A stretch of DNA of 64,000 nt from Bacillus sp. ISL-37 (GTDB taxonomy: Bacteria > Bacillota > Bacilli > Bacillales > Cytobacillaceae), in NCBI RefSeq assembly GCF_018613315.1, contig NZ_JAGGQL010000003.1, positions 310,001-374,000 of the forward strand, written 5' to 3'. Below are positions 2,582 to 46,679 of the stretch, one piece after another. The notes below the pieces were generated by a model. The model was not told where the DNA came from. It searched no databases and saw nothing but the letters and a program-made list of their open reading frames with translations. Positions within the stretch are counted from its first letter, which is position 1. Each line of letters begins with the position of its first letter. A program made the translations under genes and the position numbers.

Positions 2582-2737
2582 TGACAGCTTTTCTCCTGCT
2601 GAAGCCAAATCTGTCACAAGTTGCTCTTTCTTTTGACATCTTTCCTCCGGTTGAAGCCAAACCTGTCACAAGTTGCTCTTTCTTTTGACAGCTTTTCTCT
2701 GGTTGATGCCAAACCTGTCAGAAGCCTGAAGTGTTCA
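2582..2737. repeat. Three tandem 52-bp units with internal inverted repeat (TGACAG family)
   Basis: Units begin at 2582, 2634 and 2686, exactly 52 bp apart. Each starts TGACAGCTTTTC-like and carries CTGTCA about 24 nt later, so the ends of the first ~36 bp can pair; the rest is an AAGTTGCTCTTTCTTT spacer. The unit is recognisably related to the larger array at 10811-11382 (same TGACAGCTTTTC...AAGCCAAA...TGTCA core) but has a different spacer. It fills most of the gene-free stretch 2431-2742, directly 3' of metH. No gene is visible in it. Confidence 0.85.
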
Positions 2738-2742
2738 ATCTC

Positions 2743-5700
2743 CTAATTCTTCAACACATTGAAATACCTTGCTTCTGGATGGGAGAAAACGAGAGCCGTT
2801 ACTGATGCCTCGGGTTCCATCATGTATCCATCGGTCAAATGGATTCCGATGTCTTCTGGTTTGATCAAGTTGAAGAGCTTACGCTGATCTTCCAGATCGG
2901 GGCATGCAGGATATCCGAATGAGAAGCGCTGGCCTTGATACTTGGCTGCAAAACGGTCTTTCATTGTCATATCCGGGGTGTCAGGAAAACCCCAGCGATC
3001 GCGGATTTGGCGATGGATCAGTTCGGCGTAACCTTCTGCACTTTCAAGGGCAAGGGCCTGGAGTGCGTGGCTTTCCAGGAATCTTCCTTCATTTTTTAGT
3101 TGTTCTGCAGCCTGGCGAATTCCTGCACCTGCTGTGACAGCGAACATTCCGACGTAGTCCTTTTTGGAATCACCCACGGACCGAACGTAATCTGCCAGGC
3201 AAAGGCCGGGAGCAACCTCCTGACGCGGAAAATCAAAGGTTTCCAGGATTTGATCAGGTTGCTCTGGATTAAATATATAAAGCCTATTGCCATCCGACTG
3301 AGCAGGGAAGAACTGATAAACGGCAGCCGGTTTGATCCAACCATTTGCTTTGGCTTCCTTTAAAAGGCTTTGGACAACTTCATATAGCTTGACTGCCTTA
3401 TCATTACCCTCAGCAAGCAGATTTTCTACCTTTCCCTTTAATCCAAGATGATGCCCTATAAGCATTTGCTGGTTGATATAGGGCTCAATATGGGACAGGG
3501 AGTAGGATTTAACGAGATGCCTTTTCGTATCCTGCGGAATGAATACCGAAGCCTTTGCCGTCACTTTGGGACGCTCCAAAACGGTTGTGGATGATTTTCG
3601 CCCTGAGACCGTGAAATCCGGCTTATTCATCGCGGCTTCTTGTTTTGCTTTTTGTTCTGTTAAAAGCTGTTCATACCCTTCCGGTTCGCGGAGTTGATTT
3701 GCGATAGACAGCCCGTTCATCGCATCTTTCGCATACAATACTAGTCCGTCATACTCCTTGGCGATCTTTGTATCAGTGAACTTTCTTGATAAAGCGGCAC
3801 CGCCCACAAGAATAGGAGTGTCAATCCCTGCTTGCTTCATATCATGGGCAGTAAGCACCATCTGCTGTGCCGATTTAACAAGCAGACCAGAGAGGCCAAT
3901 GATGTCCGGTTTTTCCTTTTTAATCGCTTCAATGAGGGCAGTTGGATTCACCTTGATTCCCAGATCGACCACATCATATCCATTATTGCTCAGGATAATA
4001 TCAACCAGGTTTTTGCCAATATCGTGAACATCGCCTTTTACAGTGGCGAGAAGCACCTTGCCCTTAGCAGCGGTTGTATCATTTTTCTCCATATGAGGCT
4101 CTAAATGAGAGACAGCAGCCTTCATGACTTCAGCACTCTGTAGGACCTCAGCCACAATCAACTGGTTATCATTGAACAGTCTGCCAACTTCCTTCATCCC
4201 ATCCATCAATGGACCATTGATGATATCCAGTGGGGCAGGGTAGAGGTCCAGGGCAATATCAAGGTCTGGCTGAAGGCCTTCTTTCGTACCCTCAACCACA
4301 TAGTAGGAAAGTCTTTCTTCTAGTGTCATATCAGGCAGGGTGCTTTTTGTTTCCTTCTTTTTATCACGGTAAAAATCAGTGAATTCCGCAAGTGTCTCAT
4401 CAGTTGTATTGAATAACAGCTCTTCAGACATTTTAACCTCTTCAGGACTGATAGAAGCAAATCGTTCGAGCTTTTCCGTATTCACAATGGCGTAGTCGAG
4501 ACCTGCCTGGGTGCAGTGATAAAGAAAAACCGAATTCAATACTTCTCGTCCTACAGGTGGCAGGCCGAAGGAAACATTGCTAATTCCAAGGATTGTTTGC
4601 GTTTCCGGGAAAGTTTCCTTGATCATCCTGATTCCATCCACAGTTGCTTTAGCTGAACCAATATATTGCTCATCCCCGGTGCCGACAGGGAAGACGAGCG
4701 GATCAAAAATCAAGTCCTGTGCCGGTACTTTATATTTATTGACAAGCAAGTCGTATGATCGTTTAGCAATTTCCAATTTCCTTTCAGCGGAAACACCCAT
4801 ACCCTCTTCTTCAATCGTTCCAACAACGACAGCAGCACCATATTTGTGAATAAGGCGAGCCACAGACTCGAACCGTTCTTCGCCATCTTCCAGATTGATG
4901 GAATTGATAATTGCCTTACCCTGGGAATAACTCAATGCTTTTTCTATTACTTCATCATCAGTAGAATCGATTACGAGAGGAGCTTTAACTTTTTTAACAA
5001 CTTCTTTAATAAATACTTCCATGTCATGAAGCTCATCTCTGTCAGGGTCGGCCAGACAGATATCGATAACATGGGCTCCATTTTTAACCTGGGCCCTTGC
5101 AATCTCAGCTGCTTCTTCTATTTTGCCTTCTGAAATCAGCCGCTTGAATTTTCTGGAACCGATTACGTTCGTCCGTTCACCAACCATGATTGGCCTTAGT
5201 GTTGGATCGTCATAGATGAATGGCTCGATCCCAGAAACCATATGCAGCTTGTTTTCTTCTGTTTGCCTCGGCGGTCGCTCCTGCATTTTTTCCGAAATCG
5301 CCTTTATATGTGCAGGTGTCGTACCACAGCAGCCTCCGACAATATTCAGCCAGCCTTCACCGGCAAAATCAGAGAGCTTCTGAGCGAGCGTGTCAGGCGT
5401 TTCATGATATTGACCTTCCTCATCAGGCAGGCCAGCGTTAGGATAACAGCTGACCGCAGAAGTGGAGAGGGAGGATAGTGAACGCAGATGCTCCTGCATG
5501 AATTCCGGTCCAGTTGCACAATTCAGTCCGATTGCAATCGGATTCATATGCTGAACAGAAATATAAAATGCTTCGATGGATTGCCCTGCGAGTGTCGTGC
5601 CCATTGGTTCAATCGTGGCAGAGATCATCAGAGGAAGCTCTTTGCCACTTTTCTGAAATGCACGCTGGATTCCGGTATAAGCTGCTTTTACATTCAATAA

Positions 5701-6195
5701 GTCCTGGCTTGTTTCGAGCAACAGCAAATCAACGTTGCCATCGATTAGGCCAAGAGCCTGTTCTTCGTAGGAAGCAGACATCTCTTCAAAGGTTGAACCC
5801 CCGGTCACGCTTAGTGTTTTGGTAGTCGGTCCCATAGAACCAGCTACAAAACGGGGCTGTGAGGGAGAGAATGCCTCGTCGGCAGCTCTTCTGGCAATAA
5901 TAGCTGCTTCCTTGTTGATTTCGTACGCTCTGTGGCCCAGTTCGAATTCGTCCAGGACCAGGCTAGTTGCACCAAAGGTATTTGTCTCAACAATATCTGC
6001 GCCAGCCTTAAAGTATTCACGATGGATATTTTCAATAACATCCGGAACGGTCAGGTTCAGCATTTCGTTACAGCCTTCATATTCTTCACCGCCAAAATCC
6101 TCCGGTGTCAGGTCTGCCTGCTGGAGCATTGTTCCCATCGCGCCATCCATGATCAGGATTTTTTTCTTCATCTGTTCAGTTAACAAGGTTGACAT
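2743..6195 (-). CDS. metH: Cobalamin-dependent methionine synthase
   Basis: This 1150-residue cytoplasmic enzyme transfers the methyl group of 5-methyl-tetrahydrofolate to homocysteine through cobalamin. Domains in order: homocysteine-binding barrel (1-~310, MDGAMGTMLQ start, zinc-ligand motif GGCCGTTP), folate-binding barrel (~340-600, containing GERTNVIGS), cap plus B12 domain (~640-870, with DVHDIGKN supplying the cobalt-ligand histidine), and a C-terminal SAM-dependent reactivation domain (~880-1150, RFSFGYPACPD). Length is near the usual 1150-1230. It overlaps the yitJ stop by 20 bp and is the last gene of the met operon, so the SAM riboswitch about 4.3 kb upstream should control it. A full reactivation domain implies a flavodoxin-type reductant encoded elsewhere. 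Confidence 0.95.
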   Translation of the reverse strand: MSTLLTEQMKKKILIMDGAMGTMLQQADLTPEDFGGEEYEGCNEMLNLTVPDVIENIHREYFKAGADIVETNTFGATSLVLDEFELGHRAYEINKEAAIIARRAADEAFSPSQPRFVAGSMGPTTKTLSVTGGSTFEEMSASYEEQALGLIDGNVDLLLLETSQDLLNVKAAYTGIQRAFQKSGKELPLMISATIEPMGTTLAGQSIEAFYISVQHMNPIAIGLNCATGPEFMQEHLRSLSSLSTSAVSCYPNAGLPDEEGQYHETPDTLAQKLSDFAGEGWLNIVGGCCGTTPAHIKAISEKMQERPPRQTEENKLHMVSGIEPFIYDDPTLRPIMVGERTNVIGSRKFKRLISEGKIEEAAEIARAQVKNGAHVIDICLADPDRDELHDMEVFIKEVVKKVKAPLVIDSTDDEVIEKALSYSQGKAIINSINLEDGEERFESVARLIHKYGAAVVVGTIEEEGMGVSAERKLEIAKRSYDLLVNKYKVPAQDLIFDPLVFPVGTGDEQYIGSAKATVDGIRMIKETFPETQTILGISNVSFGLPPVGREVLNSVFLYHCTQAGLDYAIVNTEKLERFASISPEEVKMSEELLFNTTDETLAEFTDFYRDKKKETKSTLPDMTLEERLSYYVVEGTKEGLQPDLDIALDLYPAPLDIINGPLMDGMKEVGRLFNDNQLIVAEVLQSAEVMKAAVSHLEPHMEKNDTTAAKGKVLLATVKGDVHDIGKNLVDIILSNNGYDVVDLGIKVNPTALIEAIKKEKPDIIGLSGLLVKSAQQMVLTAHDMKQAGIDTPILVGGAALSRKFTDTKIAKEYDGLVLYAKDAMNGLSIANQLREPEGYEQLLTEQKAKQEAAMNKPDFTVSGRKSSTTVLERPKVTAKASVFIPQDTKRHLVKSYSLSHIEPYINQQMLIGHHLGLKGKVENLLAEGNDKAVKLYEVVQSLLKEAKANGWIKPAAVYQFFPAQSDGNRLYIFNPEQPDQILETFDFPRQEVAPGLCLADYVRSVGDSKKDYVGMFAVTAGAGIRQAAEQLKNEGRFLESHALQALALESAEGYAELIHRQIRDRWGFPDTPDMTMKDRFAAKYQGQRFSFGYPACPDLEDQRKLFNLIKPEDIGIHLTDGYMMEPEASVTALVFSHPEARYFNVLKN

Positions 6196-8038
6196 TTTGT
6201 TTCCTCCTCATAAGACGGCTGCTGTATTCATTAGCGTAGCTCGACAACTCGACACTCATTTCATAGTTCATAAAAGGAGTGATCAAATAGATTCCGTTAA
6301 ACAGTTCTGCTGCAGCCTCAATTAAACCTTTTGTGATCGCTATGCCTTCCTTTTTGGATTGCAGCGGTTCATTATTGAATTTCGCCATGATGTCGAGGAT
6401 TTCCTGTGAAATCTTGATGCCCGGAACTTCGTTATGAAGGAATTCTGCGTTTCTGCTGCTCGTGAGCGGCATCAATCCAATATAAATAGGGGCATCTATA
6501 TGCTTTGTTGCTTCATGGACCTCAACAAGCATTTTTTCAGAGTAAACGGGCTGGGTGATGAAATAATCGGCACCAGCACGGATTTTCTTTTCCATCCTAG
6601 CCACTGCTTTTTCGATGGAGCGGACATTTGGATTGAAGGCAGCGCCGATCGAAAAAGCACCTTTTTGTCCTAAATCCTTTCCAGAATAGGAAAGACCTTC
6701 ATTAAACTGCTTGATCATCTCGATTAATTCGAAGGAAGAGACATCAAAAACTGACGACGCACCAGGAAAATCACCTACGCGGGCAGGGTCTCCCGTCACG
6801 GCTAACACATCATGAAGCCCAAGCGTATGCAAACCCATCAAATGAGACTGAAGCCCAATGATGTTCCGGTCACGACAAGTAAGATGCACAAGGGGGCGCA
6901 AACCGATCTTTTCCTTTACGAGATGTCCGATTGCACCATTTGAGATTCTTGGTGAAGCAAGTGAATTATCAGCTAGAGTAAGGGCGTCTATACCTGTATC
7001 CTTTAGTGCTTTTGCTCCTTCAAAAAAACGAGTTGTATCCAGTTTTCGCGGTGAGTCAAGCTCGACAATCACAGAAGGCCGTTCCTTTACCACCTGATCT
7101 AGTGGAGCTAAAGGCCTTTTTACGTCAGAAGGAGTGACAATAATCTTTGGCTTCTTCGCAGGGATTTTCTTGTCTAACACTGGTGGCAATCCCTTTAGCT
7201 CATCAGCAAATGCTTTTATATGTTCAGGAGTCGTGCCGCAACAACCTCCAATCAGCCTGATTCCCTGATCTCGGAAGCTGCGGGCTGACTTGCCGAAATA
7301 CTCAGGATTGCCTTCATAGTGGAATTTCCCATCTGTATAGGCAGGCAACCCGGCATTTGGATAGACTGACAGAAATGCCTTTGAAGGAAGCTCTAACTGC
7401 TCAAGACTCGAAATCATATGATGGGGACCAAGTCTGCAATTAAGGCCCACAATATCGGCGCCGAGGTCTTCGAGTCTATTAAAAACTTCCTGAAGCGGGG
7501 TCTGATCCTGCATAATCCCTATTTCCTGAAGGGATACTTGGGAGATGATAGGCAGGTCGGTCTCCTTTCGGGCAATCTCGAGCACCGTCTCGATTTCTTC
7601 CATATCATAAAATGTCTCTAGCAAAAGTCCGTCCACACCCTCAAGGAGGAGACAGTAGAGCTGCTCCCTGAAGCTTCTTTTGATTTCTTCAATCGGGATG
7701 GCGGAAGGCCTGATTCCACGGTTGCCGCCAATCGTCCCGAGGACATAGGCATCGGTGCCTGCAGCTTGTCGGGCGAGTCTTACTGCTGCACTATTAATCT
7801 CTTTCACCTGATCCTCGAGTCCATATCTTTCAAGTTTTATATAATTCGCTGCATAGGTGTTCGTCTGGATAAGGTCAGCACCCGCGTTTATATAGGCTTT
7901 ATGGATCCGGATGATGTCATCAGGATGTGAGATGTTCAACTCTTCAAAACAGGTGCCTGCTCCATAAGAGTGGAGGAGAGTACCAATCGCTCCATCGGCG
8001 ATTAAAATTTCATTTTCCAGGCGTTTCAGGAAACTCAT
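6176..8038 (-). CDS. yitJ: Bifunctional homocysteine S-methyltransferase / methylene-THF reductase
   Basis: The 620-residue protein fuses an N-terminal homocysteine S-methyltransferase barrel (about 1-300, with MDGAIGTLL-like ADGAIGTLLHSYG and the zinc-binding GGCCGTTPEH) to a C-terminal 5,10-methylene-tetrahydrofolate reductase (about 320-610, with LTCRDRNI and FITQPVYS as in MetF). This is the YitJ architecture of Bacillus. The reductase part makes 5-methyl-THF, the methyl donor for the MetH gene that overlaps its 3' end. The N-terminal half may transfer methyl groups from S-methylmethionine or similar donors; that is inferred from the family. Its start shares one base with the metC stop (TAATG), so translation is probably coupled. 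Confidence 0.92.
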   Translation of the reverse strand: MSFLKRLENEILIADGAIGTLLHSYGAGTCFEELNISHPDDIIRIHKAYINAGADLIQTNTYAANYIKLERYGLEDQVKEINSAAVRLARQAAGTDAYVLGTIGGNRGIRPSAIPIEEIKRSFREQLYCLLLEGVDGLLLETFYDMEEIETVLEIARKETDLPIISQVSLQEIGIMQDQTPLQEVFNRLEDLGADIVGLNCRLGPHHMISSLEQLELPSKAFLSVYPNAGLPAYTDGKFHYEGNPEYFGKSARSFRDQGIRLIGGCCGTTPEHIKAFADELKGLPPVLDKKIPAKKPKIIVTPSDVKRPLAPLDQVVKERPSVIVELDSPRKLDTTRFFEGAKALKDTGIDALTLADNSLASPRISNGAIGHLVKEKIGLRPLVHLTCRDRNIIGLQSHLMGLHTLGLHDVLAVTGDPARVGDFPGASSVFDVSSFELIEMIKQFNEGLSYSGKDLGQKGAFSIGAAFNPNVRSIEKAVARMEKKIRAGADYFITQPVYSEKMLVEVHEATKHIDAPIYIGLMPLTSSRNAEFLHNEVPGIKISQEILDIMAKFNNEPLQSKKEGIAITKGLIEAAAELFNGIYLITPFMNYEMSVELSSYANEYSSRLMRRKQNVNLVN

Positions 8039-10331: not shown

Positions 10332-10458
10332 TTTACTCACTCCTAATGGTTGTAGTCAGACGGCAATTTTTGTTTTATGAGTAAAGACGAAATTTACGAC
10401 TTTTAAAAAGACCAATTCCCGCAAAGCTTCAGAAAGACGGTGCGGGGAGTCCCTTATA

Positions 10459-10489
10459 AAACAAAAAAGCCTTCTTAAGAAGAAGACTT
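10459..10489 (-). terminator. Riboswitch-controlled transcription terminator
   Basis: On the minus strand a 10-bp stem (AAGTCTTCTT / AAGAAGGCTT, loop CTT) is followed by TTTTGTTTT. It lies directly after the SAM-I aptamer and about 130 nt before metI, the normal place for the expression platform. When SAM is bound this stem should form and stop transcription. Confidence 0.85.
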
Positions 10490-10510
10490 TTACAGATGAT
10501 AGCCATTCTT

Positions 10511-10619
10511 CTTATCTGCCAAGTTTTAAAAACTTGCTGGAATTAGCACCTTTTCAACAAGGAAAGTTGAAGGTTGCTGAAGCTTCACAGGGCCAGGACC
10601 CTCAGCTTCTCTGGATAAG
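10511..10619 (-). promoter_or_regulatory. SAM-I (S-box) riboswitch aptamer
   Basis: Minus-strand sequence shows the S-box consensus in order: CTTATCCAGAGAAGCTGAGG (P1 and start of P2), a GGCCCTGTGAAGCTTCAGC core, AACCTT, a P3 hairpin, GGTGCTAATTCCAGCA, a P4 stem around AAGTTTTT/AAAACTT, and the closing P1 strand AGATAAG. The outer P1 helix pairs CTTATC(C) with (A)GATAAG. It binds S-adenosylmethionine and should switch off the metI-metC-yitJ-metH operon when SAM is plentiful. Confidence 0.95.
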
Positions 10620-10652
10620 ATTTCATATTATTGAATTATTAAATTTCTCTAA

Positions 10653-10681
10653 ATATTACAGCTGTTATGAAAGAATGTCAA
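10653..10681 (-). promoter_or_regulatory. Sigma-A type promoter of the met operon
   Basis: Minus strand: TTGACA (10681-10676), 17-nt spacer, TAATAT (10658-10653). The predicted start near 10646 puts the riboswitch about 27 nt into the transcript. The rest of 10682-10810 shows only a degenerate, partial 52-bp repeat unit (about 10772-10810). Confidence 0.75.
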
Positions 10682-10810
10682 TCATTTTGTTAATGCGGTA
10701 AAGCAAATAGGTAAAAGATCCTTGTGGTTTAATATCTGGCAGGGCATAGTGATTCTATTCAGAGAGCTTTCCAGATTATTGGGGCAAAGCTCAAGATTCC
10801 GTTTTTATTG

Positions 10811-11382
10811 TGACAGCTTTTCTTGTTCTGGAGCCAAAGTTGTCAAGATTCTGCTTTTATTATGACAGCTTTTCTGAATCCGGAACCAAAGTTGTCAAGA
10901 TTCCACCGTTATTATGACAGCTTTTCTTGATCAGAAGCCAAAGTTGTCAAGATTCTGCTTTTATTATGACAGCTTTTCTGAATCCGGAACCAAAGCTGTC
11001 AAGATTCCGCCAGTATTATGACAGCTTTTCATGATCCAAAGCCAAAGCTGTCAAGATTCCGCCGTTATTATGACAGCTTTTCTGAATCCGGAGCCAAAGC
11101 TGTCAAGATTCCGCCAGTATTGTGACAGCTTTTCATGATCCAAAGCTAAAGCTGTCAAGATTCCGCTGTTATTGTGACAGCTTTTCTGGATCCGGAGCCA
11201 AAGCTGTCAAGATTCCGCCAGTATTATGGCAGCTTTTCATGATCCAAAGCCAAAGCTGTCAAGATTCCGCCGTTATTATGACAGCTTTTCTGAATCCGGA
11301 GCCAAAGCTGTCAAGATTCCGCCAGTATTGTGACACCTTTTCATGATCCAAAGCCAAAGCTGTCAAGATTCCGCTGCCTCAT
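10811..11382. repeat. Eleven tandem 52-bp hairpin units (TGACAG array)
   Basis: Units start at 10811 and then every 52 bp to 11331 without a single indel. Positions 1-10 (TGACAGCTTT) and 26-35 (AAAGCTGTCA) are perfect inverted repeats separated by 15 nt; a 17-nt spacer (AGATTCCGCCAGTATTA-like) completes the unit. Loops alternate: even units read TCTGAATCCGGAGCC, later odd units TCATGATCCAAAGCC, so the true period is 104 bp. The array lies between the 3' end of the neutral protease gene and the met promoter. It has no coding potential (52 is not a multiple of 3) and is not CRISPR-like. Function is unknown. Confidence 0.95.
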
Positions 11383-11384
11383 AA

Positions 11385-11418
11385 TAAAAAACTGGCTCAC
11401 ATTAATAAATGAGCCAGT
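11385..11418 (-). terminator. Terminator of the neutral protease gene
   Basis: A 9-bp perfect stem ACTGGCTCA / TGAGCCAGT (11391-11399, 11410-11418) is followed on the minus strand by a run of seven T. It sits 20 nt after the protease stop and directly before the repeat array. Confidence 0.85.
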
Positions 11419-11437
11419 CTGACTAAATATAGAGCTA

Positions 11438-13093
<1,656 letters not shown>

Positions 13094-17388: not shown

Positions 17389-18570
17389 GTGAATTACATA
17401 AAAAACTTTAGTGTGATATTTGCCATCCTGATGGCATTTTTTATTTTACCAAACCTGGTTTCGGCGCATAATGGTTCACGGGATGAATTGGGCGGCCATT
17501 TCCGCAATTCCGATTGTATGTATTTGCTTCATGAACCGACGTCGATTGCGAAAAGCGCAGCCAATATTGGCGAGCTGCTCAGATTGATTAATCAGTATAA
17601 CAGTAATTCTGATTGTGCAGCCGGACTCACTGAGGAAAAAGTCGATTTGGAAGGGTATACTTTCTCAGAAGCAGGAAATGCTGCGTCAGAATCTAATCAG
17701 TCTGCAGGCGAAATGCCTAAAGCTGAAGTTTCTACCGGCAAATTGCAGCTTGGAAAAATGTATGAAGCAGAATTGTCAGCTTGCACAGACGGTGATACGG
17801 CTGTGTTTACAATCAACGGCAAGGACTATAAAACACGTTTTCTCTATATTGATACTCCTGAAAGCACAAGGACGAAGGAACCATTCGGACCTGAAGCGGC
17901 ACAGTATACATGTTCCTTTTTAAAGCAAGGGAAAATTAAACTTGAGACGGATGGCGGGAACCTTTTTGATAAATATGATCGACTTCTTGCCTGGGTTTGG
18001 GTAGGAGACAAGCTGCATCAGGAGGAAATTACTAAGGCAGGATTAGTCGAAGACTTTTACGACTATGACAGCTATAAATATGAAAATCGCATCTGGTCGG
18101 CGATGGATTATGCAAAAGAAAGTGGAAAAGGCATATATGCAGGTACGGATACTCCAGAAGAGAGAAATGAACAATCACAAGAGCAACCTAAGAAGCAGGA
18201 GCAACAGACAAAAAATGAAAATGAAGAAAGCCAACAGGAGAATCAACCTGATAGCAATGAAGAAGATACCGAAGTAACAGACCAACAGCGTGAATCGAAA
18301 CAAGAAACCGAAAAGGCTGAAACAGCTGAAGAAGAGTTTGACTGCAGCTTTTTAAGCGGCCTATTATACACTTTGTTATTTTACCTCATCGTTCCCATAA
18401 AGAAGGCGATGGGCAAGCGGACGCTGATCGCTCACAGGTTGTGGAGCAAAAAATGGCCGCTCAACCTGTTACTTGGCTTAATTTATGCTTTCCTATGCTA
18501 CATCACCTTGCTGCTATTGTTGGTGGAAGTCCTCCACCTTTTCAAAAATAAAAAGCGCAAGCGAAAATGA
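17389..18570 (+). CDS. Membrane-anchored thermonuclease with N-terminal YHYH-like domain
   Basis: GTG start with AGGGGG upstream; 393 residues. Order: signal peptide (1-26, cut after VSA), a His/Cys motif HNGSRDELGGHFRNSDC resembling the YHYH domain (27-80), a staphylococcal-nuclease domain (about 118-253) with the catalytic set Arg150, Asp155, Glu158 and Arg198 (RFLYIDTPES, YDRLLAW), a Glu/Gln/Lys-rich linker (255-317), and two membrane helices near 320-336 and 358-382 with a K/R-rich end. The nuclease domain therefore faces the outside, tethered at the membrane. It may supply nucleotides from extracellular DNA or RNA. The C-terminal double anchor is unusual for this family. The stop codon is the first three bases of the repeat array. 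Confidence 0.8.
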   Translation: MNYIKNFSVIFAILMAFFILPNLVSAHNGSRDELGGHFRNSDCMYLLHEPTSIAKSAANIGELLRLINQYNSNSDCAAGLTEEKVDLEGYTFSEAGNAASESNQSAGEMPKAEVSTGKLQLGKMYEAELSACTDGDTAVFTINGKDYKTRFLYIDTPESTRTKEPFGPEAAQYTCSFLKQGKIKLETDGGNLFDKYDRLLAWVWVGDKLHQEEITKAGLVEDFYDYDSYKYENRIWSAMDYAKESGKGIYAGTDTPEERNEQSQEQPKKQEQQTKNENEESQQENQPDSNEEDTEVTDQQRESKQETEKAETAEEEFDCSFLSGLLYTLLFYLIVPIKKAMGKRTLIAHRLWSKKWPLNLLLGLIYAFLCYITLLLLLVEVLHLFKNKKRKRK

Positions 18571-18873
18571 CGGACATAATTCAATGTGTAATCTGAAAAA
18601 CTGTCCGTCATCCAGGTCATGACGGACATAAATCGCTAGAGAATCGAGAAAACTGTCCGTCATCAAGGCCATGACGGACACAAATCGATGGAAAATCGGA
18701 AAAAATGTCCGTCATCCAGGTTAAGACGGACATAAATCGCTGGAGAATCGAGAAAACTGTCCGTCATTGAGGCCATGACGGACACTAATCGATGGGAAAT
18801 CGGAAAAATTGTCCGTCATCAAGGCCATGACGGACACTAATTGATGTAAAACCGGGAAAACTGTCCGTCATCC
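18568..18873. repeat. Six tandem 52-bp hairpin units (TGACGGACA array)
   Basis: Units start at 18568, 18620, 18672, 18724, 18776 and 18828, exactly 52 bp apart; the last is cut short. Positions 1-9 (TGACGGACA) and 35-43 (TGTCCGTCA) are inverted repeats. Units 2 and 4 share AAATCGCTAGAGAATCGAG-like loops while 3 and 5 share AATCGATGGAAAATCGG-like loops, so the true period is 104 bp. The first unit uses the TGA stop of the nuclease gene. The array fills the 3'-3' gap to the convergent gene at 18917. Arm sequence is unrelated to the arrays at 2582 and 10811. Confidence 0.95.
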
Positions 18874-18916
18874 TTTATGGGTGGCGTTTTCTATTTTAGC
18901 AAGAACCCAGCTTTTC

Positions 18917-19696
18917 TTATGGTGCCGCGATCTTCAATATCTTGAAGAAATCATCCCGATTATATGCCTCGTAAAGTAATGTTTCATGATTGAAAATGGC
19001 GTAATACGGCAGCGAATCGATTTTCAAATCAGGAAATTGCCGGCGTGCTTCCTCAAGGTTGTTAACCTTCAAAGAATGTGCCTTATGTACATATTTGTTA
19101 TTTACCTGTTCAAGAGCCCAATTTTCCTGCAGCGCTTCTGGTTTATACAGTTCTAGTACGGCCAAGTAGCCTGGTTCTTCGGCAAGTTGTGCCTGATAAG
19201 CAACCACTTCTTCAATGATTAATGGAAAAGCATAATGATAGACTTGATCTCCGCTGGAGGCCTGAATGATTACTGTACTTTGGCCAGCCACATTGTTAAA
19301 AGTATAGGTATTATCAAAAAATGTTTCAAATGGAAGGTTCCCCATCTCCAAATCTCCATGTCCCTTTGAGCGGTAGATGGAAATATTGTCAATTCCGGCT
19401 TTTTCGGGAAAAGTGATCTTCATTTCGCTGAATGGCTTCACGCTGACAGGCAGCAGATCATGGAACAGGATTGGTGGCTCATCCTGGTCGACGACAGGTC
19501 CGGTGCCTTTTTCTACCCAGGCAAATGTACCTGATTTATATAATACTTCCTGGCCTCCAACGGTTATTACTGCTACTGGAATGCTAAATGACGGTTCTTT
19601 TTCCTGTTCTGGCATAAGGGTTCGGAATCCATCTATGGTGAGGATCAGCAATATAGCTAATAGGACGATTCCATACGGAAGCCATTTACTTGTCAT
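18917..19696 (-). CDS. Membrane-anchored extracytoplasmic protein of unknown function
   Basis: 259 residues; one N-terminal membrane helix (about 6-24, YGIVLLAILLILTI) followed by a soluble, beta-rich extracytoplasmic part with no cysteines and no motif I recognise. The C-terminal third (PYYAIFNHETLLYEAYNRDDF) hints at a thioredoxin-like tail seen in some Bacillus proteins, but this is weak. The start overlaps the end of the small membrane protein gene by 11 bp and has a poor ribosome site, so translation is probably coupled to it. The pair forms a two-gene unit. Confidence 0.6.
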   Translation of the reverse strand: MTSKWLPYGIVLLAILLILTIDGFRTLMPEQEKEPSFSIPVAVITVGGQEVLYKSGTFAWVEKGTGPVVDQDEPPILFHDLLPVSVKPFSEMKITFPEKAGIDNISIYRSKGHGDLEMGNLPFETFFDNTYTFNNVAGQSTVIIQASSGDQVYHYAFPLIIEEVVAYQAQLAEEPGYLAVLELYKPEALQENWALEQVNNKYVHKAHSLKVNNLEEARRQFPDLKIDSLPYYAIFNHETLLYEAYNRDDFFKILKIAAP

Positions 19697-21371: not shown

Positions 21372-21523
21372 GAAATTAGCTGATTGCACACGTATTAGGC
21401 ACTTTGCAATTTGCTTATTCTAATGTTTGAAGACGTTTGAATAGGTCATGTATGAGGAACTAGTCGTTGTGATTTGCTAAATTTAATCATGGCTTGTTCG
21501 GCCGATCTAGGAGGATTTTTCAC

Positions 21524-21724
21524 ATGAAAAACGGTAAAGTTAAATGGTTCAATGCGGAAAAGGGTTTTGGATTCATCGAAGCTGAAGACGGCAATGATAT
21601 TTTCGTACATTACTCTGCTATTCAAACAGAAGGTTTCAAAACATTAGAAGAAGGCCAGGAAGTATCTTTCGAGGTTGTTGAAGGTGCTCGTGGACCACAA
21701 GCTGCTAACGTTACTAAACTATAA
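21524..21724 (+). CDS. cspD: Cold-shock protein (CspA/CspB family)
   Basis: 66 residues, the standard length. The ATG at 21524 has TAGGAGGA upstream; an upstream in-frame ATG at 21494 lies in the leader and is not needed. The RNA-binding motifs RNP1 (KGFGFIE) and RNP2 (DIFVHYSAI) are intact. It is a single oligonucleotide-binding fold that melts mRNA structure at low temperature. The start [17 protein letters not shown] resembles B. subtilis CspD more than CspB; the exact paralog is uncertain. Followed by its own terminator. Confidence 0.93.
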
Positions 21725-21742
21725 TTCTTAATTTGATCTTAT

Positions 21743-21769
21743 AGCTCAGCCATCTGGCTGGGCTTTTTA
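21743..21769 (+). terminator. Terminator of the cold-shock gene
   Basis: 9-bp stem AGCTCAGCC / GGCTGGGCT (one G-T pair) with ATCT loop and five T. Confidence 0.9.
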
Positions 21770-21855
21770 TGTACCAAAAAAATTATTTCGAAACCTTTCC
21801 AGTATGGAAAACGTAATATCGTTAACAACTATTTCACAAGGTGAGGTGTATAAAA

Positions 21856-37273: not shown

Positions 37274-37287
37274 AAGGGGTGTGCTGT

Positions 37288-38286: not shown

Positions 38287-38337
38287 AAACAGTTCTCAGA
38301 GCTGATTCAAGATTCTAATAGAAAGGGGCGATGACGT

Positions 38338-39282: not shown

Positions 39283-39324
39283 TAGTTGCCCAAGCTTCTT
39301 AAACTTTTAACAGGAGAGGATTAC

Positions 39325-40842: not shown

Positions 40843-40866
40843 GCCATTTACCAAGGAGGAGCGCAA

Positions 40867-41730
40867 GTGGAACAAAGAACAATTTTAACAACCAGCAAGC
40901 GAGGACTGCAGATAGATTCATTCCCGTTCCGTCTCTATCAAAAAGCGAAGAAGTTCGGCATCTGGAACCCAGCTGATATTGATTTTACCCAGGACCAAAA
41001 AGACTGGAAGCAACTGAATGCTGAACAACAGAATGATATTTTGCGTTTAGTTTCGCAGTTCCAGGCCGGGGAGGAGGCCGTTACCCTTGATTTGCTGCCA
41101 CTGATCATGGCCATCGCAAAAGAAGGCAGGCTCGAGGAGGAGATGTTTTTAACCACCTTCTTGTTCGAAGAGGCCAAGCATACAGAGTTCTTCCGTCTTG
41201 CCTTGAATGCACTTGGTGAAACAGGTGATCTATCAGGACACCATACAACTACCTATAAAACGATTTTTTATGAAATCCTGCCAACTACGATGGACCGTCT
41301 GATGACAGACCAATCACCTGAAGCGATCGCCGAAGCAGCAACTGTCTACAATATGTTCGTCGAGGGTGTCCTTGCTGAAACGGGCTATTACTCATTCTAT
41401 CAAAATCTCGAAACACTCGGTTTAATGCCAGGACTCCTCAAGGGAATCGGCAATTTGAAAAGAGACGAATCCAGGCATATCGGCTATGGAACCTTCCTGC
41501 TGCAAAGACTGATCTGTGAGCACCCTCATTTGTACGAGTTTGTTGAAGGGAAAATGCAGGAACTAACTCCGCTTGCCATCCGCCTGAACCAGGAGGGCTT
41601 CAAGGGTAAGGATGTAAGTACCTTCGGCAACCAGATTGAAGATACGATGAATTTTACCATGAAACAGCTTGCTGTCCGGATGGACATCCTGTCCCGTGCA
41701 AGGGGCAAGCGGATTGAAGAGATTTATTGA
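40867..41730 (+). CDS. R2-like ligand-binding oxidase (R2lox), Mn/Fe
   Basis: 287 residues, GTG start after AAGGAGGAG. Ferritin-like fold with six metal ligands visible at about Glu69, Glu102, His105, Glu166, Glu201 and His204 (GEEAVT, FEEAKHTEF, YNMFVEG, DESRH). Val72 and Tyr161 are both present; in Geobacillus kaustophilus R2lox the matching pair forms a Tyr-Val ether cross-link. These proteins bind a long-chain fatty acid next to a Mn/Fe centre and are not ribonucleotide reductases; the physiological reaction is unknown. Its place at the end of a fatty-acid operon, behind an acyl-CoA ligase, supports a lipid oxidation role. Confidence 0.92.
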   Translation: MEQRTILTTSKRGLQIDSFPFRLYQKAKKFGIWNPADIDFTQDQKDWKQLNAEQQNDILRLVSQFQAGEEAVTLDLLPLIMAIAKEGRLEEEMFLTTFLFEEAKHTEFFRLALNALGETGDLSGHHTTTYKTIFYEILPTTMDRLMTDQSPEAIAEAATVYNMFVEGVLAETGYYSFYQNLETLGLMPGLLKGIGNLKRDESRHIGYGTFLLQRLICEHPHLYEFVEGKMQELTPLAIRLNQEGFKGKDVSTFGNQIEDTMNFTMKQLAVRMDILSRARGKRIEEIY

Positions 41731-41786
41731 GTCACAGAAACAGAGATGGGAGTTCTATAAGGATAACCCAAGGAGGTAACTATCGA

Positions 41787-41913
41787 GTTGATCGAAATAA
41801 ATCCAGAAGTGGTCGATATATTCGCTAATGTGGTCGATAAATCCTGAAATGTGGTCGATATATTCGCTAATGTGGTCGATAAATCCCGAAATGTGGTCGA
41901 TAAATCTGTAAAA
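41787..41913. repeat. 21-bp tandem array (GTGGTCGAT), alternating dimers
   Basis: Five units start at 41809, 41830, 41851, 41872 and 41893, exactly 21 bp apart, preceded by a diverged one. They begin GTGGTCGATA and alternate between ATATTCGCTAAT and AAATCC(C/T)GAAAT endings, so the true period is 42 bp. Because 21 is a multiple of 3 both strands show heptad open frames, but none is a convincing gene. An unused AAGGAGG lies at 41773. The array follows the R2lox gene; the rest of the gene-free stretch to 42086 shows nothing clear. Confidence 0.9.
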
Positions 41914-42086
41914 CTGTTCAATAAAATTCAAATCTGGCTGATCAGCGTTGTTACGTGAACCCGAAATCTTAATTTTTGCTGATAATCGCTAAAGAATGAT
42001 AGTAAAAAAGAATTTATTTTTACCTGGTTACTGTATTCGTTGATATTTCGGAATCAAAATTTAAAAAGCGATAAGGAGGAAGCAAA

Positions 42087-43616
42087 ATCACAGTGAATAT
42101 CGATGTAAAAACGTTCCCGTTGTTCATTAATGGAAAATGGGAGGCAGCGAGCAGCCAGGAAACCTTTGATGTATTTAATCCGGCAACTGGTGAACTAGTG
42201 GCACGCGTGGCAAAAGGAAATGCAGCTGATGTTGACAGGGCCATTGATGCAGCACGTAAGGCATTTGATGAAACTGACTGGAAGGATATGAAGCCAAAGG
42301 ACAGGTCGAAGGTGCTTTATGCTATCTCCTATCAAATAGCTGCCCATGCAGAAGAATTGGCTTATCTTGAAGCGGTCAGTTCCGGCGGTACGGTGAGAAG
42401 AATTGGCGCAAACGATATTCTTCAAATGGTCGATTTATTCCAGACATTGGCTAAGTTCGTTGAAGAATATGAGTTTTCTGAAACGCTGCCAAGCCCGCCA
42501 TTTCCGGGACCGGCACATAATTTTATCTGGCGTGAACCTATCGGAGTTTGCGCAGCAATTACTCCTTGGAACCTGCCAATGGTGATCGCGACATGGAAAA
42601 TCGCGCCTGCACTGGCGATGGGAAATACGGTTGTCGTCAAGCCGGCAAGCTACACTCCTTTATCGACTTTGAAGTTGGCTGAAATCATTTCACAGGTCGT
42701 ACCTCCTGGAGTCATTAATGTCGTGACTGGCCCGGGTGCTGAAGTCGGGGAAAAGCTGGCCAGTCATCCAAAAGTTGATAAGGTTGCTTTTACAGGATCA
42801 ACTGAAGTGGGCCGAAAGGTGATGCAGCTGGCTGCCGGGACAGTAAAGAACACGACACTAGAGCTTGGAGGTAAGTCACCTAACATCATTCTTGAGGATG
42901 CAGACTTAAGTATCGCCCTGCCAGGAAGCTTATTCGGGGTGTTCCTGCACTCAGGACAGCTTTGTGAATCAGGGACGAGATTGTTTGTACCGGATCATTT
43001 GCATGATGTCATTGTTGAGAACCTTGTAAAGCTGGCTGGGAAAATTAAACTCGGCAACCCACTTGACCCAGCAAGTGATGTGGGCCCTATCATCTCAAAT
43101 AAGCAAAAAGAGACGATTTTATCCTATATCGAAGCAGGAAAAGCAGAAGGAGCCACCCTTGTTTGCGGTGGAAAAGAAGCTAAGGTTGATGGCTGCGAAA
43201 ATGGCCATTTCATTGAACCAACCATTTTCACAAATGTAACGAATGACATGAAAATTGCCCGTGAAGAAATTTTTGGTCCAGTATTGTCGGTGATCCGATA
43301 TACAGATGTTAACGAAGCCATCAAAATGGCGAATGACTCGATCTACGGTCTTGCTGCAGGCGTTTGGACCAGGGACGTGAATAAAGCATATGAGGTTGCC
43401 CGCAAGCTGCAGGCTGGCGTGGTTTGGATCAATGACTGGCATATGCTGCGCAATGATGCCCCATTTGGCGGTTATAAGCAGAGCGGAATCGGCCGCGAGA
43501 TGGGCAAGCATTCACTCGATGCCTACACACAAGTCAAGCATGTGCACACTTCTATGGTACCAGAAGCTCATAAGCGAACATGGTATGGCTTGCTGCTTTC
43601 CGACAGTGCTGAGTAA
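42087..43616 (+). CDS. Aldehyde dehydrogenase family protein
   Basis: About 508 residues. NAD(P)-dependent oxidation of an aldehyde to an acid: [41 protein letters not shown], the catalytic Glu in LELGGKS and catalytic Cys in GQLCESGTR. The GTG at 42093 is 13 nt from AAGGAGG (long), whereas an in-frame ATC at 42087 sits at the ideal 7 nt, the third such case in this window; either start gives a full-length enzyme (coordinates here use ATC). It pairs with the alcohol dehydrogenase 29 nt downstream, so an alcohol to aldehyde to acid route is likely. Confidence 0.9.
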
Positions 43617-43645
43617 GAAAATAAAAATTTTATGAGGTGAATAGG

Positions 43646-44860
43646 ATGCAAACGACAACATTATCACAGTTCTCCCTACGTTCGGCAATTTACAGTGGAT
43701 CAAATTCCCGTGCAATGGTACCTGATTTGTTCAAGGGCTTAGGGTCTAAAAGGGTGGTTCTTTTTAGCGACAGAGGTCTGGAAAAAGCCGGCGTAGTAGA
43801 CAAGGTCGCCCAAATTTTCGAGCTGACCAGTAAAGGAACCGGCCCTGAACTTGCAGGGATTTATGTCGACATTGCCCAGGATGCCGAAAGCACTTCGGTG
43901 AATGAAGCACTTCGTTATGCAAGGGAAGTGGGGGCTGACGGATTGCTTGCTGTCGGAGGCGGCAGCGTGCTTGACACAGTTAAAGGAGTAAAGTATGCCC
44001 TGCATAAAGGGTTAACCGATATCAAGGAAGCGATTCCTGGCGGCTTTTTATTCGAGCAATTTCCAAAGGCAACCCATATCCCGATTCCGCACATCGCCAT
44101 TCCGACAACTGCGGGAACAGGATCTGAGGTCTCGCCGATCGCGGTCATCTACAATGAAGATATCCAAATGAAGGGCAATATCATCAATCCTTTCCTCAGT
44201 GCGGACATTGCGGTACTGGATCCTGACTTGACAGTAGGTCTGCCGCCTGCAATCACTGCTTTTACCGGCTTTGATGCACTGACCCATGCGATCGAGGCAT
44301 TTGCATCACCTAGTGCCACTGCACTGACTGATGCCCATGCTTTGCATGCAATCAGGCTGATTGAAAAAAATCTTCCGCTTGCTGTAGCAGAAGGTTCCAA
44401 TCTTGACGCAAGAATGGAAATGCTGCAGGCTAGCCTTATGGGGATCACGGCATTCAGTTTTGCTTTGAACGCCATTCCAGTCCATAACTTCGCCCATGCA
44501 TATGGAGCATTGTTCCGAATTCCTCATGGACTGGCAAATGCCGTTTTCCTCCCTGTGGTGATGGAATATGTACCAAGTTTGTATCTTCCGAAGGTAAAAG
44601 AGTTAGCCGCGGCATTGAGGGTTGACTTTGATACTGATGAGGATCATGAGTCTGTCCTGGCAAAAGTTGTTGAAAAAATCAGGGTGCTTCAGCATAAGAC
44701 CGGATTGCCATCGGACTTTACAGAATACAATTTAACTGAGGGAGACCTGGAGCGGGTTGCAGGTGCCGTTGCCAAGGACCCTGCCGCCGTATCCTTCCCG
44801 ATGCCAAAAGAACTGATTCAGGCTGTCGGACAGCAAGTCGTGCCACTTGGCGTAAAATAA
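43646..44860 (+). CDS. Iron-dependent alcohol dehydrogenase (group III)
   Basis: 404 residues from the ATG at 43646 (GAGGTGAAT upstream). Motifs: NAD-binding GGGSVLDTVKG, AGTGSEVSP, and the metal-binding histidines in DALTHAIEAFAS and HNFAHAYGALFRIPHG. It oxidises a primary alcohol, or reduces an aldehyde, with NAD. Forms a two-gene unit with the aldehyde dehydrogenase and ends at a terminator. Confidence 0.9.
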   Translation: MQTTTLSQFSLRSAIYSGSNSRAMVPDLFKGLGSKRVVLFSDRGLEKAGVVDKVAQIFELTSKGTGPELAGIYVDIAQDAESTSVNEALRYAREVGADGLLAVGGGSVLDTVKGVKYALHKGLTDIKEAIPGGFLFEQFPKATHIPIPHIAIPTTAGTGSEVSPIAVIYNEDIQMKGNIINPFLSADIAVLDPDLTVGLPPAITAFTGFDALTHAIEAFASPSATALTDAHALHAIRLIEKNLPLAVAEGSNLDARMEMLQASLMGITAFSFALNAIPVHNFAHAYGALFRIPHGLANAVFLPVVMEYVPSLYLPKVKELAAALRVDFDTDEDHESVLAKVVEKIRVLQHKTGLPSDFTEYNLTEGDLERVAGAVAKDPAAVSFPMPKELIQAVGQQVVPLGVK

Positions 44861-44867
44861 TATGAAA

Positions 44868-44893
44868 TAAGAGGGGAATCCGAACGCGGTTCA
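44868..44893 (+). terminator. Terminator after the alcohol dehydrogenase gene
   Basis: Stem AAGAGGG / CCCTCTT with an inner CCG/CGG helix, followed by TTTTT. Confidence 0.75.
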
Positions 44894-44964
44894 CCCTCTT
44901 TTTACAGTAAAAAGGGATATTCAATCTAATTTGCTTGCACATTCTCATAAAGGAGTGGTCACCG

Positions 44965-46182
44965 ATGATGAATTTTGATTTTACTGAAGAACAAGAGCTA
45001 TTGAGAAAAACGGTCAGGAGCTTTGTAGACAAGGAAATCATGCCATATATAAAAGATTGGGATGAAAACCAGCATTTTGAAACCAGTATTTTAACAAGAC
45101 TTGCTGACCTTGGACTCATGGGTGTCTGTATACCAGAACAATATGGCGGCAGCGGGATGGACTATAATTCCCTGGCGATTGTATGCGAGGAACTAGAACG
45201 CGGCGATACAGCATTCAGGACAGCAGTATCCGTGCACACCGGACTGAACAGCATGACATTGCTTCAGTGGGGAAATGAGGAACAAAAGCAAAAGTACCTG
45301 GTGCCACAGTCAAAAGGGCAGAAGATAGGAGCGTTCGGCCTTACCGAACCTAATGCAGGGTCCGATGTGGCCGCGATGGAGACAACGGCAAGTGATGCAG
45401 GAGACCACTATGTCCTCAATGGATCAAAAACATGGATATCATTATGTGATGTAGCGGACCACTTCCTTGTATTTGCTTATACGGACAAAAGCAAAAAACA
45501 CCATGGCATCTCTGCCTTTATTGTGGAAAGAACCTGGGAAGGCTTCTCCTCTAAAGCGATAAAAGGAAAATTGGGTATTAGGGCCGGAAATACCGGTGAA
45601 ATTTTCTTTGATAATGTAAAGGTTCCTAAAGAAAATTTGCTGGGTGAAGAGGGAGATGGGTTTAAAATTGCGATGTCTGCACTGGATAATGGCCGCTTCA
45701 CGGTAGCTGCTGGGGCATGCGGAACAATCCTGGCAAGCCTTGAGTCTAGTGTAAAATACTGCCATGAACGAAGCACCTTTGGCAAAGAGATAGGCAGACA
45801 CCAGCTCATCCAGCAGATGATCGCCAAGATGGAAGCAGGATTGGTACAATCACGATTGCTCGTTTACCGTGCCGGCTGTCTTAAAAACCAGGGTAAGAGG
45901 AATACCCGGGAAACCTCCCTGGCCAAGTGGCAGGCATGCGACTATGCGTATGAAGCGGCAAATGATGCCGTCCAAATCCACGGTGCCTACGGATTCTCTA
46001 ACGAATATCCGGTTGAACGATATTTAAGGAACGCTAAAGCACCTGTCATTTATGAAGGAACTCGAGAAATTCATACAGTCATGCAGGGAGAGTATGTTTT
46101 AGGATATCGGGTCGATAAGCCATTGTCCAATATGCTTCCAGCCTGGCCGTTTGAGTCTGTTACTGAAGAGGCCGTGAAATAA
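44965..46182 (+). CDS. Acyl-CoA dehydrogenase (glutaryl-CoA dehydrogenase-like)
   Basis: 405 residues from ATG 44965 (AAAGGAGTGG upstream; ATG 44968 also possible). FAD flavoprotein with FGLTEPNAGSD, the FAD-binding SKTWIS, and the catalytic Glu in YEGTREIHTVMQGEYVLG, the sequence context of glutaryl-CoA-type enzymes. It introduces the alpha-beta double bond in an acyl-CoA and passes electrons to ETF, which is not encoded here. Single gene between a terminator and the 52-bp array. Confidence 0.88.
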   Translation: MMNFDFTEEQELLRKTVRSFVDKEIMPYIKDWDENQHFETSILTRLADLGLMGVCIPEQYGGSGMDYNSLAIVCEELERGDTAFRTAVSVHTGLNSMTLLQWGNEEQKQKYLVPQSKGQKIGAFGLTEPNAGSDVAAMETTASDAGDHYVLNGSKTWISLCDVADHFLVFAYTDKSKKHHGISAFIVERTWEGFSSKAIKGKLGIRAGNTGEIFFDNVKVPKENLLGEEGDGFKIAMSALDNGRFTVAAGACGTILASLESSVKYCHERSTFGKEIGRHQLIQQMIAKMEAGLVQSRLLVYRAGCLKNQGKRNTRETSLAKWQACDYAYEAANDAVQIHGAYGFSNEYPVERYLRNAKAPVIYEGTREIHTVMQGEYVLGYRVDKPLSNMLPAWPFESVTEEAVK

Positions 46183-46211
46183 GTTAAGTGTAGAGATTGA
46201 GTAGATACTTT

Positions 46212-46679
46212 TGCTTTACCCGAAATTCGGTGGTGGAGTCCATTTAGGGTAATGCAACGGCTCTGCTTTACCCATAAATCGCTGACGGAGTCCATTTGGG
46301 GTAATGCAACGGCTCTGCTTTACCCGTAATTCGGTGGCGAAGTCCATTTGGGGTAATGCAATGGCTCTGCTTTACCCGTAAACCGCTGACGGAGTCCATT
46401 TGAGGTAATGCAACGGCTTTGCTTTACCCGTAATTCTGTGGATGGAGTCCATTTGGGAAAAGCAACGGCTCTGCATTGCCCGTAATTCGCTGGAGATGTC
46501 ATTTTGGGGAAATGCAACGGCTCTGCTTTACTCGTAATTCGGCGGCAAAGTCATTTTGGGTAAAAGCAACGCTTCTAAATTGCCCGAAAATCCTTGGCGA
46601 AGTCATTTTGGGGAAATGCAACACCTCTGCATTGACCGTAATTCGCTGGCGATGTCATTTTGGGTAAAAGCAGCAAATA
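46212..46679. repeat. Nine tandem 52-bp hairpin units (TGCTTTACCC array)
   Basis: Units start at 46212 and every 52 bp to 46628 with no indel. Positions 1-10 (TGCTTTACCC) pair with 36-45 (GGGTAATGCA, one mismatch). In units 5-9 arms change (e.g. TGCATTGCCC with GGGAAATGCA) yet stay mostly complementary. In the first five units, odd and even loops alternate (AATTCGGTGG versus AATCGCTGACGG). It fills most of the 600-bp gap between two convergent genes; the remainder (46680-46740) shows nothing. Confidence 0.95.

What the first reader, a model, noticed from the sequence alone, without database searches (positions are those of the whole stretch)
2582..46679. One 52-bp pitch and a 104-bp dimer rule shared by unrelated intergenic hairpin arrays
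Four arrays (2582, 10811, 18568, 46212; 3, 11, 6 and 9 units) all repeat at exactly 52 bp with no indel. Three arm families are unrelated in sequence (TGACAGCTTT, TGACGGACA, TGCTTTACCC). Each unit holds one inverted repeat with arms of 9-10 bp, and in the three longer arrays two unit variants alternate, giving 104 bp. Conserved length with free sequence suggests selection or an amplification mechanism that measures length: 52 bp is about five and 104 bp about ten helical turns. All lie directly 3' of a gene, two of them between convergent genes. I know no named family with these properties. Possible roles are transcript 3'-end structures, nucleoid-protein or topoisomerase sites, or products of a replication-slippage or hairpin-processing system.
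Basis: partly seen in the sequence, partly recalled or inferred. Interest (0 to 1): 0.88.

Follow-up and report, generated by a model that had tools for sequence, protein, structure and literature searches.

The report
Fork-oriented 52-bp hairpin repeat arrays
Between the genes of many Bacillus-like bacteria lie tandem 52-base-pair units, often hundreds per genome, each a small imperfect palindrome with fixed ends plus a one-sided spacer; most arrays examined face along the direction of DNA replication, and what they do is not known.

Summary
In detail: all four arrays are real and strictly 52 bp (25 of 25 spacings), and they belong to a genome-wide class in a Mesobacillus genome. The arm families are not unrelated: 28 of 43 position-sampled arrays contain exactly TGTC-N19-GACA, and 8 of the 14 that lack even a near match hold a GGGY-N19-KACC-like core. 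A unit is a 27-bp imperfect palindrome with fixed ends plus a 25-bp linker. The 104-bp dimer is not a rule (best lag in 6 of 30 arrays). The tandem class-1 core occurs in 98 of 151 genomes of the family and 51 of 299 of the order; the reversed pattern gave 0-1 per genome. Inner arms covary. The purine-rich strand is the leading strand in 37 of 43 arrays. Arrays avoid divergent intergenic regions (1 of 129). Loci turn over fast. Y1 transposase and reverse transcriptase are each absent from some array-rich genomes. Best reading: a REP/STAR-like repeat family held to fixed geometry because an unidentified factor reads each unit; a functionless satellite is the main rival.

The parts
2569..2724 (-). 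52-bp array, 3 units, class 1 (F1), between the metH stop and a bidirectional terminator-like hairpin; purine-rich on the - strand
   Evidence: the orthologous site has 3, 2, 9 and 9 units in 4 of the 20 genus genomes whose metH 3' end is held, none called in the other 16
2612..2638 (.). first 27-bp core of that array, TGTC-N19-GACA
   Evidence: sequence; core defined
10791..11376 (-). 52-bp array, 11 units, class 1 (F1), downstream of a terminator-like hairpin of a neutral-protease gene and upstream of the SAM-riboswitch met operon
10841..10867 (.). first 27-bp core of that array, TGTC-N19-GACA
   Evidence: sequence
18567..18873 (+). 52-bp array, 6 units, class 1 (F2, TGTCCGTCAT-N7-ATGACGGACA), between convergent genes; purine-rich on the + strand; terminator-like hairpins on the - strand
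18602..18628 (.). first 27-bp core of that array, TGTC-N19-GACA
   Evidence: sequence; also listed by the terminator scan
46212..46680 (+). 52-bp array, 9 units, class-2-like (GGGT-N19-ACCC), between convergent acyl-CoA dehydrogenase and M42 peptidase genes
   Evidence: orthologous arrays of other lengths, or none, in the genus
46247..46273 (.). first 27-bp core of that array, GGGTAATGCAACGGCTCTGCTTTACCC
   Evidence: sequence, geometry

Best explanation
Shown: these are members of a dispersed, high-copy family of intergenic tandem repeats found in many Bacillales genomes. Each 52-bp unit is a 27-bp imperfect palindrome with fixed 4-bp ends (TGTC...GACA, or GGGY...KACC) whose inner arms vary but tend to stay complementary, followed by a 25-bp linker that is purine-rich on one strand, usually the leading strand. 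In the sampled Mesobacillus genomes arrays lie in intergenic regions 3' of at least one gene and almost never between divergent genes; at the one site compared in detail, copy number differs by whole units. Inferred: units multiply by slippage or unequal recombination, as in other bacterial tandem repeats. The core, the pitch of 52 (51-53) and the orientation are kept because each unit is read by a factor acting in trans, which recognises the palindrome, as a dyad in duplex DNA or as a hairpin exposed in single-stranded DNA at the fork, and tolerates only a small change in spacing between neighbours. Functionally this would be closest to BIME/REP sites bound by nucleoid or topology factors. 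The factor is not identified.
For: Fixed ends at one offset in 28 of 43 position-sampled arrays (shuffled consensus 0.0005 per array). Spacing spectrum: N19 = 60 vs median 5 (own), 124 vs 11 (G020), 15 vs 6 (G011), and 4 vs 4 in ten other families. Tandem class-1 pattern in 98 of 151 family genomes and 51 of 299 order genomes, reversed-pattern control 0-1 per genome; class 2 in 29 of 61. Inner arms covary: six positions at 32-47 of 55 paired, 0 of 500 shuffles reaching each. Length kept: 519 of 543 units at modal pitch. In arrays with significant arms, arms diverge less than the rest of the unit (6.2% vs 9.4%). Polarity with replication 32 of 37 plus 5 of 6, including 5 of 6 arrays between two lagging-strand genes. 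Arrays in 14 of 110 convergent, 17 of 485 codirectional and 1 of 129 divergent intergenic regions.
Against: No binding protein is known and no gene was linked to the arrays. Arrays are patchy: 53 of 151 family genomes, including one of the 21 genus genomes, lack the tandem class-1 pattern, and individual loci turn over (metH site: 4 of 20), so no single array is essential. Pitch 53 and 51 arrays are uniform within themselves in several cases, as expected from plain inheritance of unit length. 37 of 43 does not exceed the share of genes on the leading strand (0.79-0.84; p=0.14 against 0.78); independence from genes rests on 6 arrays plus the F2 loci (41 or 42 of 44). Inner-arm mismatches of exact class-1 cores lean to wobble on the pyrimidine strand (51 vs 25), which a duplex-only model does not predict. 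Only 9 of 25 arrays of the other named loci carry one of the two cores.
Confidence: 0.5

Rival explanations
1. Selfish or neutral satellite: units spread and expand only through replication slippage, template switching at hairpins and recombination. Pitch, core and polarity are inherited from a few founders, and palindromes are kept by hairpin-templated correction. No host function.
For: Whole-unit copy differences at fixed edges (insert = 52n+5 with n = 2, 3, 9, 9 at metH); fast locus turnover; patchy distribution; uniform 53-bp arrays; location where insertion is tolerated.
Against: The same fixed ends at the same 23-bp offset recur in genomes whose arms and linkers are quite different; unit length is kept while sequence is lost (24 units of changed length against 2197 substitutions; comparator 51 indels per 325 substitutions).
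Confidence: 0.28
2. RNA role: tandem one-way terminators, or RNA hairpins, in transcripts that run head-on to the fork, protecting leading-strand genes from antisense transcription.
For: On the pyrimidine strand class-1 hairpins are followed by T runs (>=4 T of 8 in 60% vs 11% on the purine strand); terminator-like units 48 vs 5 of 360, shuffled 13.8; four of the cores in the 18567 array are called on the - strand only; inner arms covary; GT exceeds AC on that strand (34 vs 19 and 17 vs 6); in some class-2 arrays a T run follows the core at once (G105, G133).
Against: 34 of 43 arrays have fewer than two terminator-like units on either strand; class-2 cores keep a non-pairing step and in others (G135, most G104) the T run lies about 9 nt away; no Rfam match to an array; over arrays with significant arms GT and AC mismatches are about equal (110 vs 101).
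Confidence: 0.14
3. REP/REPIN-like mobile element moved by a single-strand transposase (Y1, IS200/IS605 or RAYT) or a reverse transcriptase, which would explain fork polarity.
For: Hairpins, dispersal and fork polarity. In the same genus six IS200-like copies in G007 and 14 identical-scoring reverse-transcriptase copies in G005 all show the same polarity; array-rich G007 has the most Y1 matches (7).
Against: Y1 gave no match in the host genome and G020, both array-rich, and 4 and 6 matches in array-poor G012 and G017, so there is no clear relation; reverse transcriptase gave no match in array-rich G002, G003, G008, G009, G016 and G018.
Confidence: 0.08

Closest known systems
STAR elements of Staphylococcus (PMC3532100; part 1 of the whole text and searched passages read)
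   Same: Intergenic, interspersed, tandem repeats of about 50 nt where several copies occur, variable copy number, locus-specific sequence, loci differing between species, no known function
   Different: STAR is a 14-bp GC-rich motif with at least 40 bp between copies; its motif is absent from this window and found in 1 of 315 loci; a word search of the paper finds no 'convergent', 'inverted' or 'orientation'; most STAR loci hold one motif
REP / BIME repeats (PMC3733652; searched passages read; gyrase and BIME roles recalled)
   Same: Short imperfect palindromes, high copy, extragenic; that paper notes its terminal CGTC motif is TGTC in many repeats
   Different: Here TGTC pairs with GACA as the palindrome's ends rather than being a one-sided tag; strict 52-bp head-to-tail pitch; fork polarity; no Y1 match in two array-rich genomes; the two Bacillus mentions found in that paper concern bcr1 only
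REPINs (PMC3116915; search listing with start of abstract only)
   Same: Dispersed miniature palindromic elements
   Different: Tied to RAYT transposases (recalled); no fixed 52-bp arrays recalled
MIRU/VNTR loci of mycobacteria (recalled)
   Same: Units of about 51-54 bp, variable number, intergenic
   Different: No palindromic core or fork polarity is recalled; sequence relation not tested

Membership tests
REP/BIME | GTAG or CGTC(TGTC) tag at one end of a palindromic stem | tested here: not met
   TGTC is one end of the palindrome and pairs with GACA; class 2 has GGGY/KACC
REP/BIME | associated Y1/RAYT transposase gene | tested here: not met
   PF01797: no match in the host genome, G019 and G020; matches in 18 of 21 genus genomes, array-rich G007 (7) and array-poor G012 (4) and G017 (6) alike
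REP/BIME | extragenic, high copy, palindromic | tested here: met
REP/BIME | bound by gyrase, IHF or Pol I (recalled) | not testable with these tools
   needs binding experiments
STAR element | TNTGTTGNGGCCC motif | tested here: not met
   0 in the window with one mismatch allowed; 1 of 315 loci for TGTTGNGGCCC
STAR element | intergenic tandem repeats of about 50 nt, locus-specific, variable number | tested here: met
Rho-independent terminator | stem-loop followed at once by a T run | tested here: not met
   as a general rule: fewer than two terminator-like units on either strand in 34 of 43 arrays; two or more, mainly on the pyrimidine strand, in 8 of 43 and on the purine strand in 1
Known structured RNA (Rfam) | match above or near a family's gathering score | tested here: not met
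   whole window, gathering; 18500-18950, E up to 5: one chance-level hit outside the array
CRISPR array | identical repeats with unique spacers and cas genes | tested here: not met
   within an array the 25-bp linkers are near-repeats, not unique spacers; cas genes were not searched for

The most novel reading that the evidence does not exclude
An unrecognised chromosome-marking system spread through the order: a dedicated hairpin- or dyad-binding protein assembles along phased 52-bp units at gene ends and uses their fork-aligned polarity, for example to handle topology, SSB or Okazaki traffic, or head-on transcription, with two recognition classes (TGTC/GACA and GGGY/KACC) reflecting specificity variants of the protein.
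Probability: 0.3. Interest if true: 0.92.

Novelty: new variant of a known kind. Interest (0 to 1): 0.77.

Why it matters
506 tandem core pairs in one genome, with one exact geometry kept across genera while the rest of the sequence changes, is a strong signature of something that reads these units. The geometry is now explicit (27-bp core with fixed ends, 25-bp polar linker, pitch 52), so the factor can be fished for and the role tested. It also offers a natural case of bacterial satellites whose orientation follows the replication fork without an obvious transposase. No description of them was seen in the listings of the ten searches of the paper library made here, which covers open-licence papers only.

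Tried and rejected
104-bp dimer rule: the best lag in units was 1 in 11, 2 in 6, 3 in 7, 4 in 4 and 5 in 2 of the 30 arrays with at least 6 units. Unrelated arm families: rejected. Coding repeats: an array was counted as noncoding unless an ORF of 100 aa or more covered over 80% of it. SpoIIIE-type SRS (GAGAAGGG) in 37 array consensuses: 0 on either strand; AddAB Chi-like AGCGG: 3 vs 1 (motifs recalled). Y1 transposase and reverse transcriptase as drivers. Known RNA. STAR motif. tRNA in one stretch, L139: none. The F2 array by DNA similarity in seven other-genus genomes: none of 7, which was misleading because mainly the core is conserved. Window array polarity: three of the five exceptions lie in the window. 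GC skew is near zero over 1-16 kb of the window, where two of the three lie, and orthologs of the window lie near mid-chromosome from the origin, that is near the presumed terminus, in G007, G009 and G011; they were kept as exceptions.

Rows dropped or repeated: arrays with fewer than 3 walked units (G020: 19 of 22 kept); one search tested those 56. The 'rel' set still includes a few arrays that overlap ORFs of 63-108 aa (L031, L041, L056, L057, L071). In one search only intergenic alignments that spanned both flanks were kept (22), which lowers the comparator's indel count; three of the 22 repeat one genome (L200 is identical to L030), and without them it is 42 indels per 285 substitutions (p=2e-5). 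One search's gapped count is less extreme than the net count: 138 indel events per 2197 substitutions (0.063) against 0.157. One search's scan for M42-locus units kept matches of 30 of 52 or better. The metH count leaves out G010, whose contig ends inside the gene. The polarity count of F2 loci is my reading of the truncated listing in six complete genomes, neighbouring hits merged, origin, terminus from skew in G020 and G011 and half-way in the others: 41 of 44 agree, 42 if the terminus of G009 is placed as in G011. The 27 cores of other genera were one per array from the listed part, one near-duplicate left out.
Full report
HOST AND SURVEY. The window lies in a 4.74-Mb, 62-contig genome. Its M42 peptidase is 98% identical to that of Mesobacillus selenatarsenatis, so the host is taken as a Mesobacillus. 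I took stretches chosen by position: 400 kb of the host genome plus the window (464 kb), 800 kb of a complete genome of the same genus (G020) and 400 kb of another (G011), and used 1.6 Mb of named loci around the M42 gene, nearly all Bacillaceae by title.

THE PITCH IS REAL AND NARROW. The four arrays have 3, 11, 6 and 9 units, all 25 spacings 52. Noncoding tandem repeats in the host sample fall at 20-21 bp (20 of 40) or 51-52 bp (15 of 40). In the named loci 25 of 69 fall at 51-53 or twice that, with none at 25-50 or 54-103. G011 repeats the pattern (9 at 20-21, 7 at 52-53, of 18). Over 56 arrays and 543 units, 519 units have exactly their array's modal length, with 2197 substitutions from consensus. 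Aligned intergenic regions of the same genus show 51 indels per 325 substitutions, or 42 per 285 without three repeated alignments. With gapped alignment the array ratio is 0.063 per substitution, still lower (p=9e-7; 2e-5 without the repeats). Pitch 53 occurs in three G020 arrays and is uniform there, so the constraint is about 51-53, not exactly 52.

THE UNIT. An unbiased scan of 43 position-sampled arrays for any 4-mer and its complement at any offset gave one winner: TGTC with GACA 23 bp on, exact in 28 of 43 (shuffled consensus 0.0005 per array). Arrays that looked unrelated (AAAGCTGTCA/TGACAGGTTT, TGACGGACA/TGTCCGTCA, AAATGTCTA, TGTCCGAA) share it. Five others carry GGGY-N19-KACC with the same 27-bp span, and looser versions, 8 of the 14 arrays without a near class-1 match, include the window's 46212 array and a 53-bp family. 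Class 2 also occurs in named Neobacillus loci, and the looser version in a Bacillus locus, L107. The remaining 25 bp form a linker that on one strand is purine-rich, with AAA two bases before TGTC in about 85% of 85 distinct linkers. Among 25 arrays of the other loci, some of them Mesobacillus too, 9 carry one of the two cores, class 1 with one mismatch allowed, so other cores probably exist.

RANGE. The tandem pattern TGTC-N19-GACA-N25-TGTC-N19-GACA (16 fixed bases) occurs 506 times in the host and in 98 of 151 genomes of the family, 17 of 25 genera; the reversed pattern gave 0-1 per genome. In a sample of the order it occurs in 51 of 299, of which 44 of 288 lie outside the family. Class 2 occurs in 29 of 61 family genomes, with two hits of the reversed pattern in all. 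Position samples of ten other families (400 kb) had no 51-53-bp array, and those ten genomes have no tandem class-1 match.

PALINDROME. Among 55 cores (28 Mesobacillus arrays, 27 copied), the six inner arm positions pair in 32 to 47 of 55, against means of 16 to 23 after shuffling partners, and no shuffle of 500 reached any of the six. The loop positions do not pair. Cores are related, so this is strong but not tree-corrected. Class 2 keeps a step that does not pair, GC against TA or GA, and several F1 arrays keep a G.G mismatch. So both sequence and pairing seem to matter. Over arrays with significant arms, GT and AC mismatches are about even (110 vs 101). On exact class-1 cores they lean to wobble on the pyrimidine strand (34 vs 19 and 17 vs 6).

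POLARITY AND CONTEXT. The purine-rich strand is the leading strand, judged by GC skew, in 32 of 37 arrays of the host and G020 and 5 of 6 of G011. Noncoding background is 0.52 purine, arrays 0.60-0.61. Genes are 0.79-0.84 on the leading strand, so the raw count alone does not separate replication from transcription (p=0.14). Two facts point to replication: arrays between two lagging-strand genes are still leading-polar in 5 of 6, and F2 loci listed in six complete genomes agree with the replichore in 41 of 44 with the terminus half-way, 42 if G009's is placed as in G011 (with origins; p=0.007 and 0.0016 against 0.78). Arrays lie in 14 of 110 convergent, 17 of 485 codirectional and 1 of 129 divergent intergenic regions.

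TURNOVER. At the metH 3' end an array is called in 4 of the 20 genus genomes whose gene end is held, and most empty sites printed show the gene running straight into a terminator-like hairpin. The inserts are 52n+5 bp with n = 2, 3, 9, 9 and the same edges. At the M42 site arrays of about 3 to 20 units, one single unit, and absences occur.

WHAT IT IS. The anatomy is that of a dispersed intergenic palindromic repeat, nearest in kind to BIME/REP and STAR repeats, but it fails the tested tags of both. Known fork-dependent elements in the same genus show the polarity expected of single-strand insertion: six of six IS200-like copies in G007 and 14 of 14 identical-scoring reverse-transcriptase copies in G005. 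But some array-rich genomes gave no match to those enzymes, while array-rich G007 has seven Y1 matches, so no relation is seen. I favour recognition in trans of a phased 27-bp site, because the fixed ends and their offset survive when much else changes. A satellite without function remains the main rival, and a one-way terminator role fits only 8 of 43 arrays.

LITERATURE. Ten searches of the held library listed no paper that, by title and start of abstract, describes these arrays. Papers opened: PMC3532100 (part 1 and passages) and PMC3733652 (passages). The library holds open-licence papers only, so prior description elsewhere is possible.

Noticed in passing
window 41785-41934; also L155, L159, L170, L027: A second class of intergenic tandem repeats with 20-21-bp pitch: TGGTCGATA family (spacings 21 and 41), CAACGGGGATTA family (21), and TTTCGCTATAAAAATC family (20). 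About six units of the last recur at several G020 loci.
   Followed up: partly
L055 16041-20211: A 4.2-kb array of 80 units (104-bp dimers by TRF) in Cytobacillus massiliigabonensis, within one mismatch of class 1 in its core.
   Followed up: no
G005 and G007: Identical-scoring reverse-transcriptase copies (14 of 14 in G005) and IS200-like copies (6 of 6 in G007) are oriented with the replication fork, a neat natural control for fork-dependent insertion.
   Followed up: partly
L196, L208, L210, 3' of the M42 gene: A related element of about 180 bp (ending GAAAACAGCC) sits between the M42 stop and its terminator-like hairpin in G020, G006 and G007.
   Followed up: no
window 10509-10621 (-) and 21467-21770 (+): SAM riboswitch of a met operon and a cspA thermoregulator match.
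   Followed up: no
G012: One Mesobacillus genome has no tandem class-1 core at all, although others of the genus have up to 615: a natural null strain.
   Followed up: no
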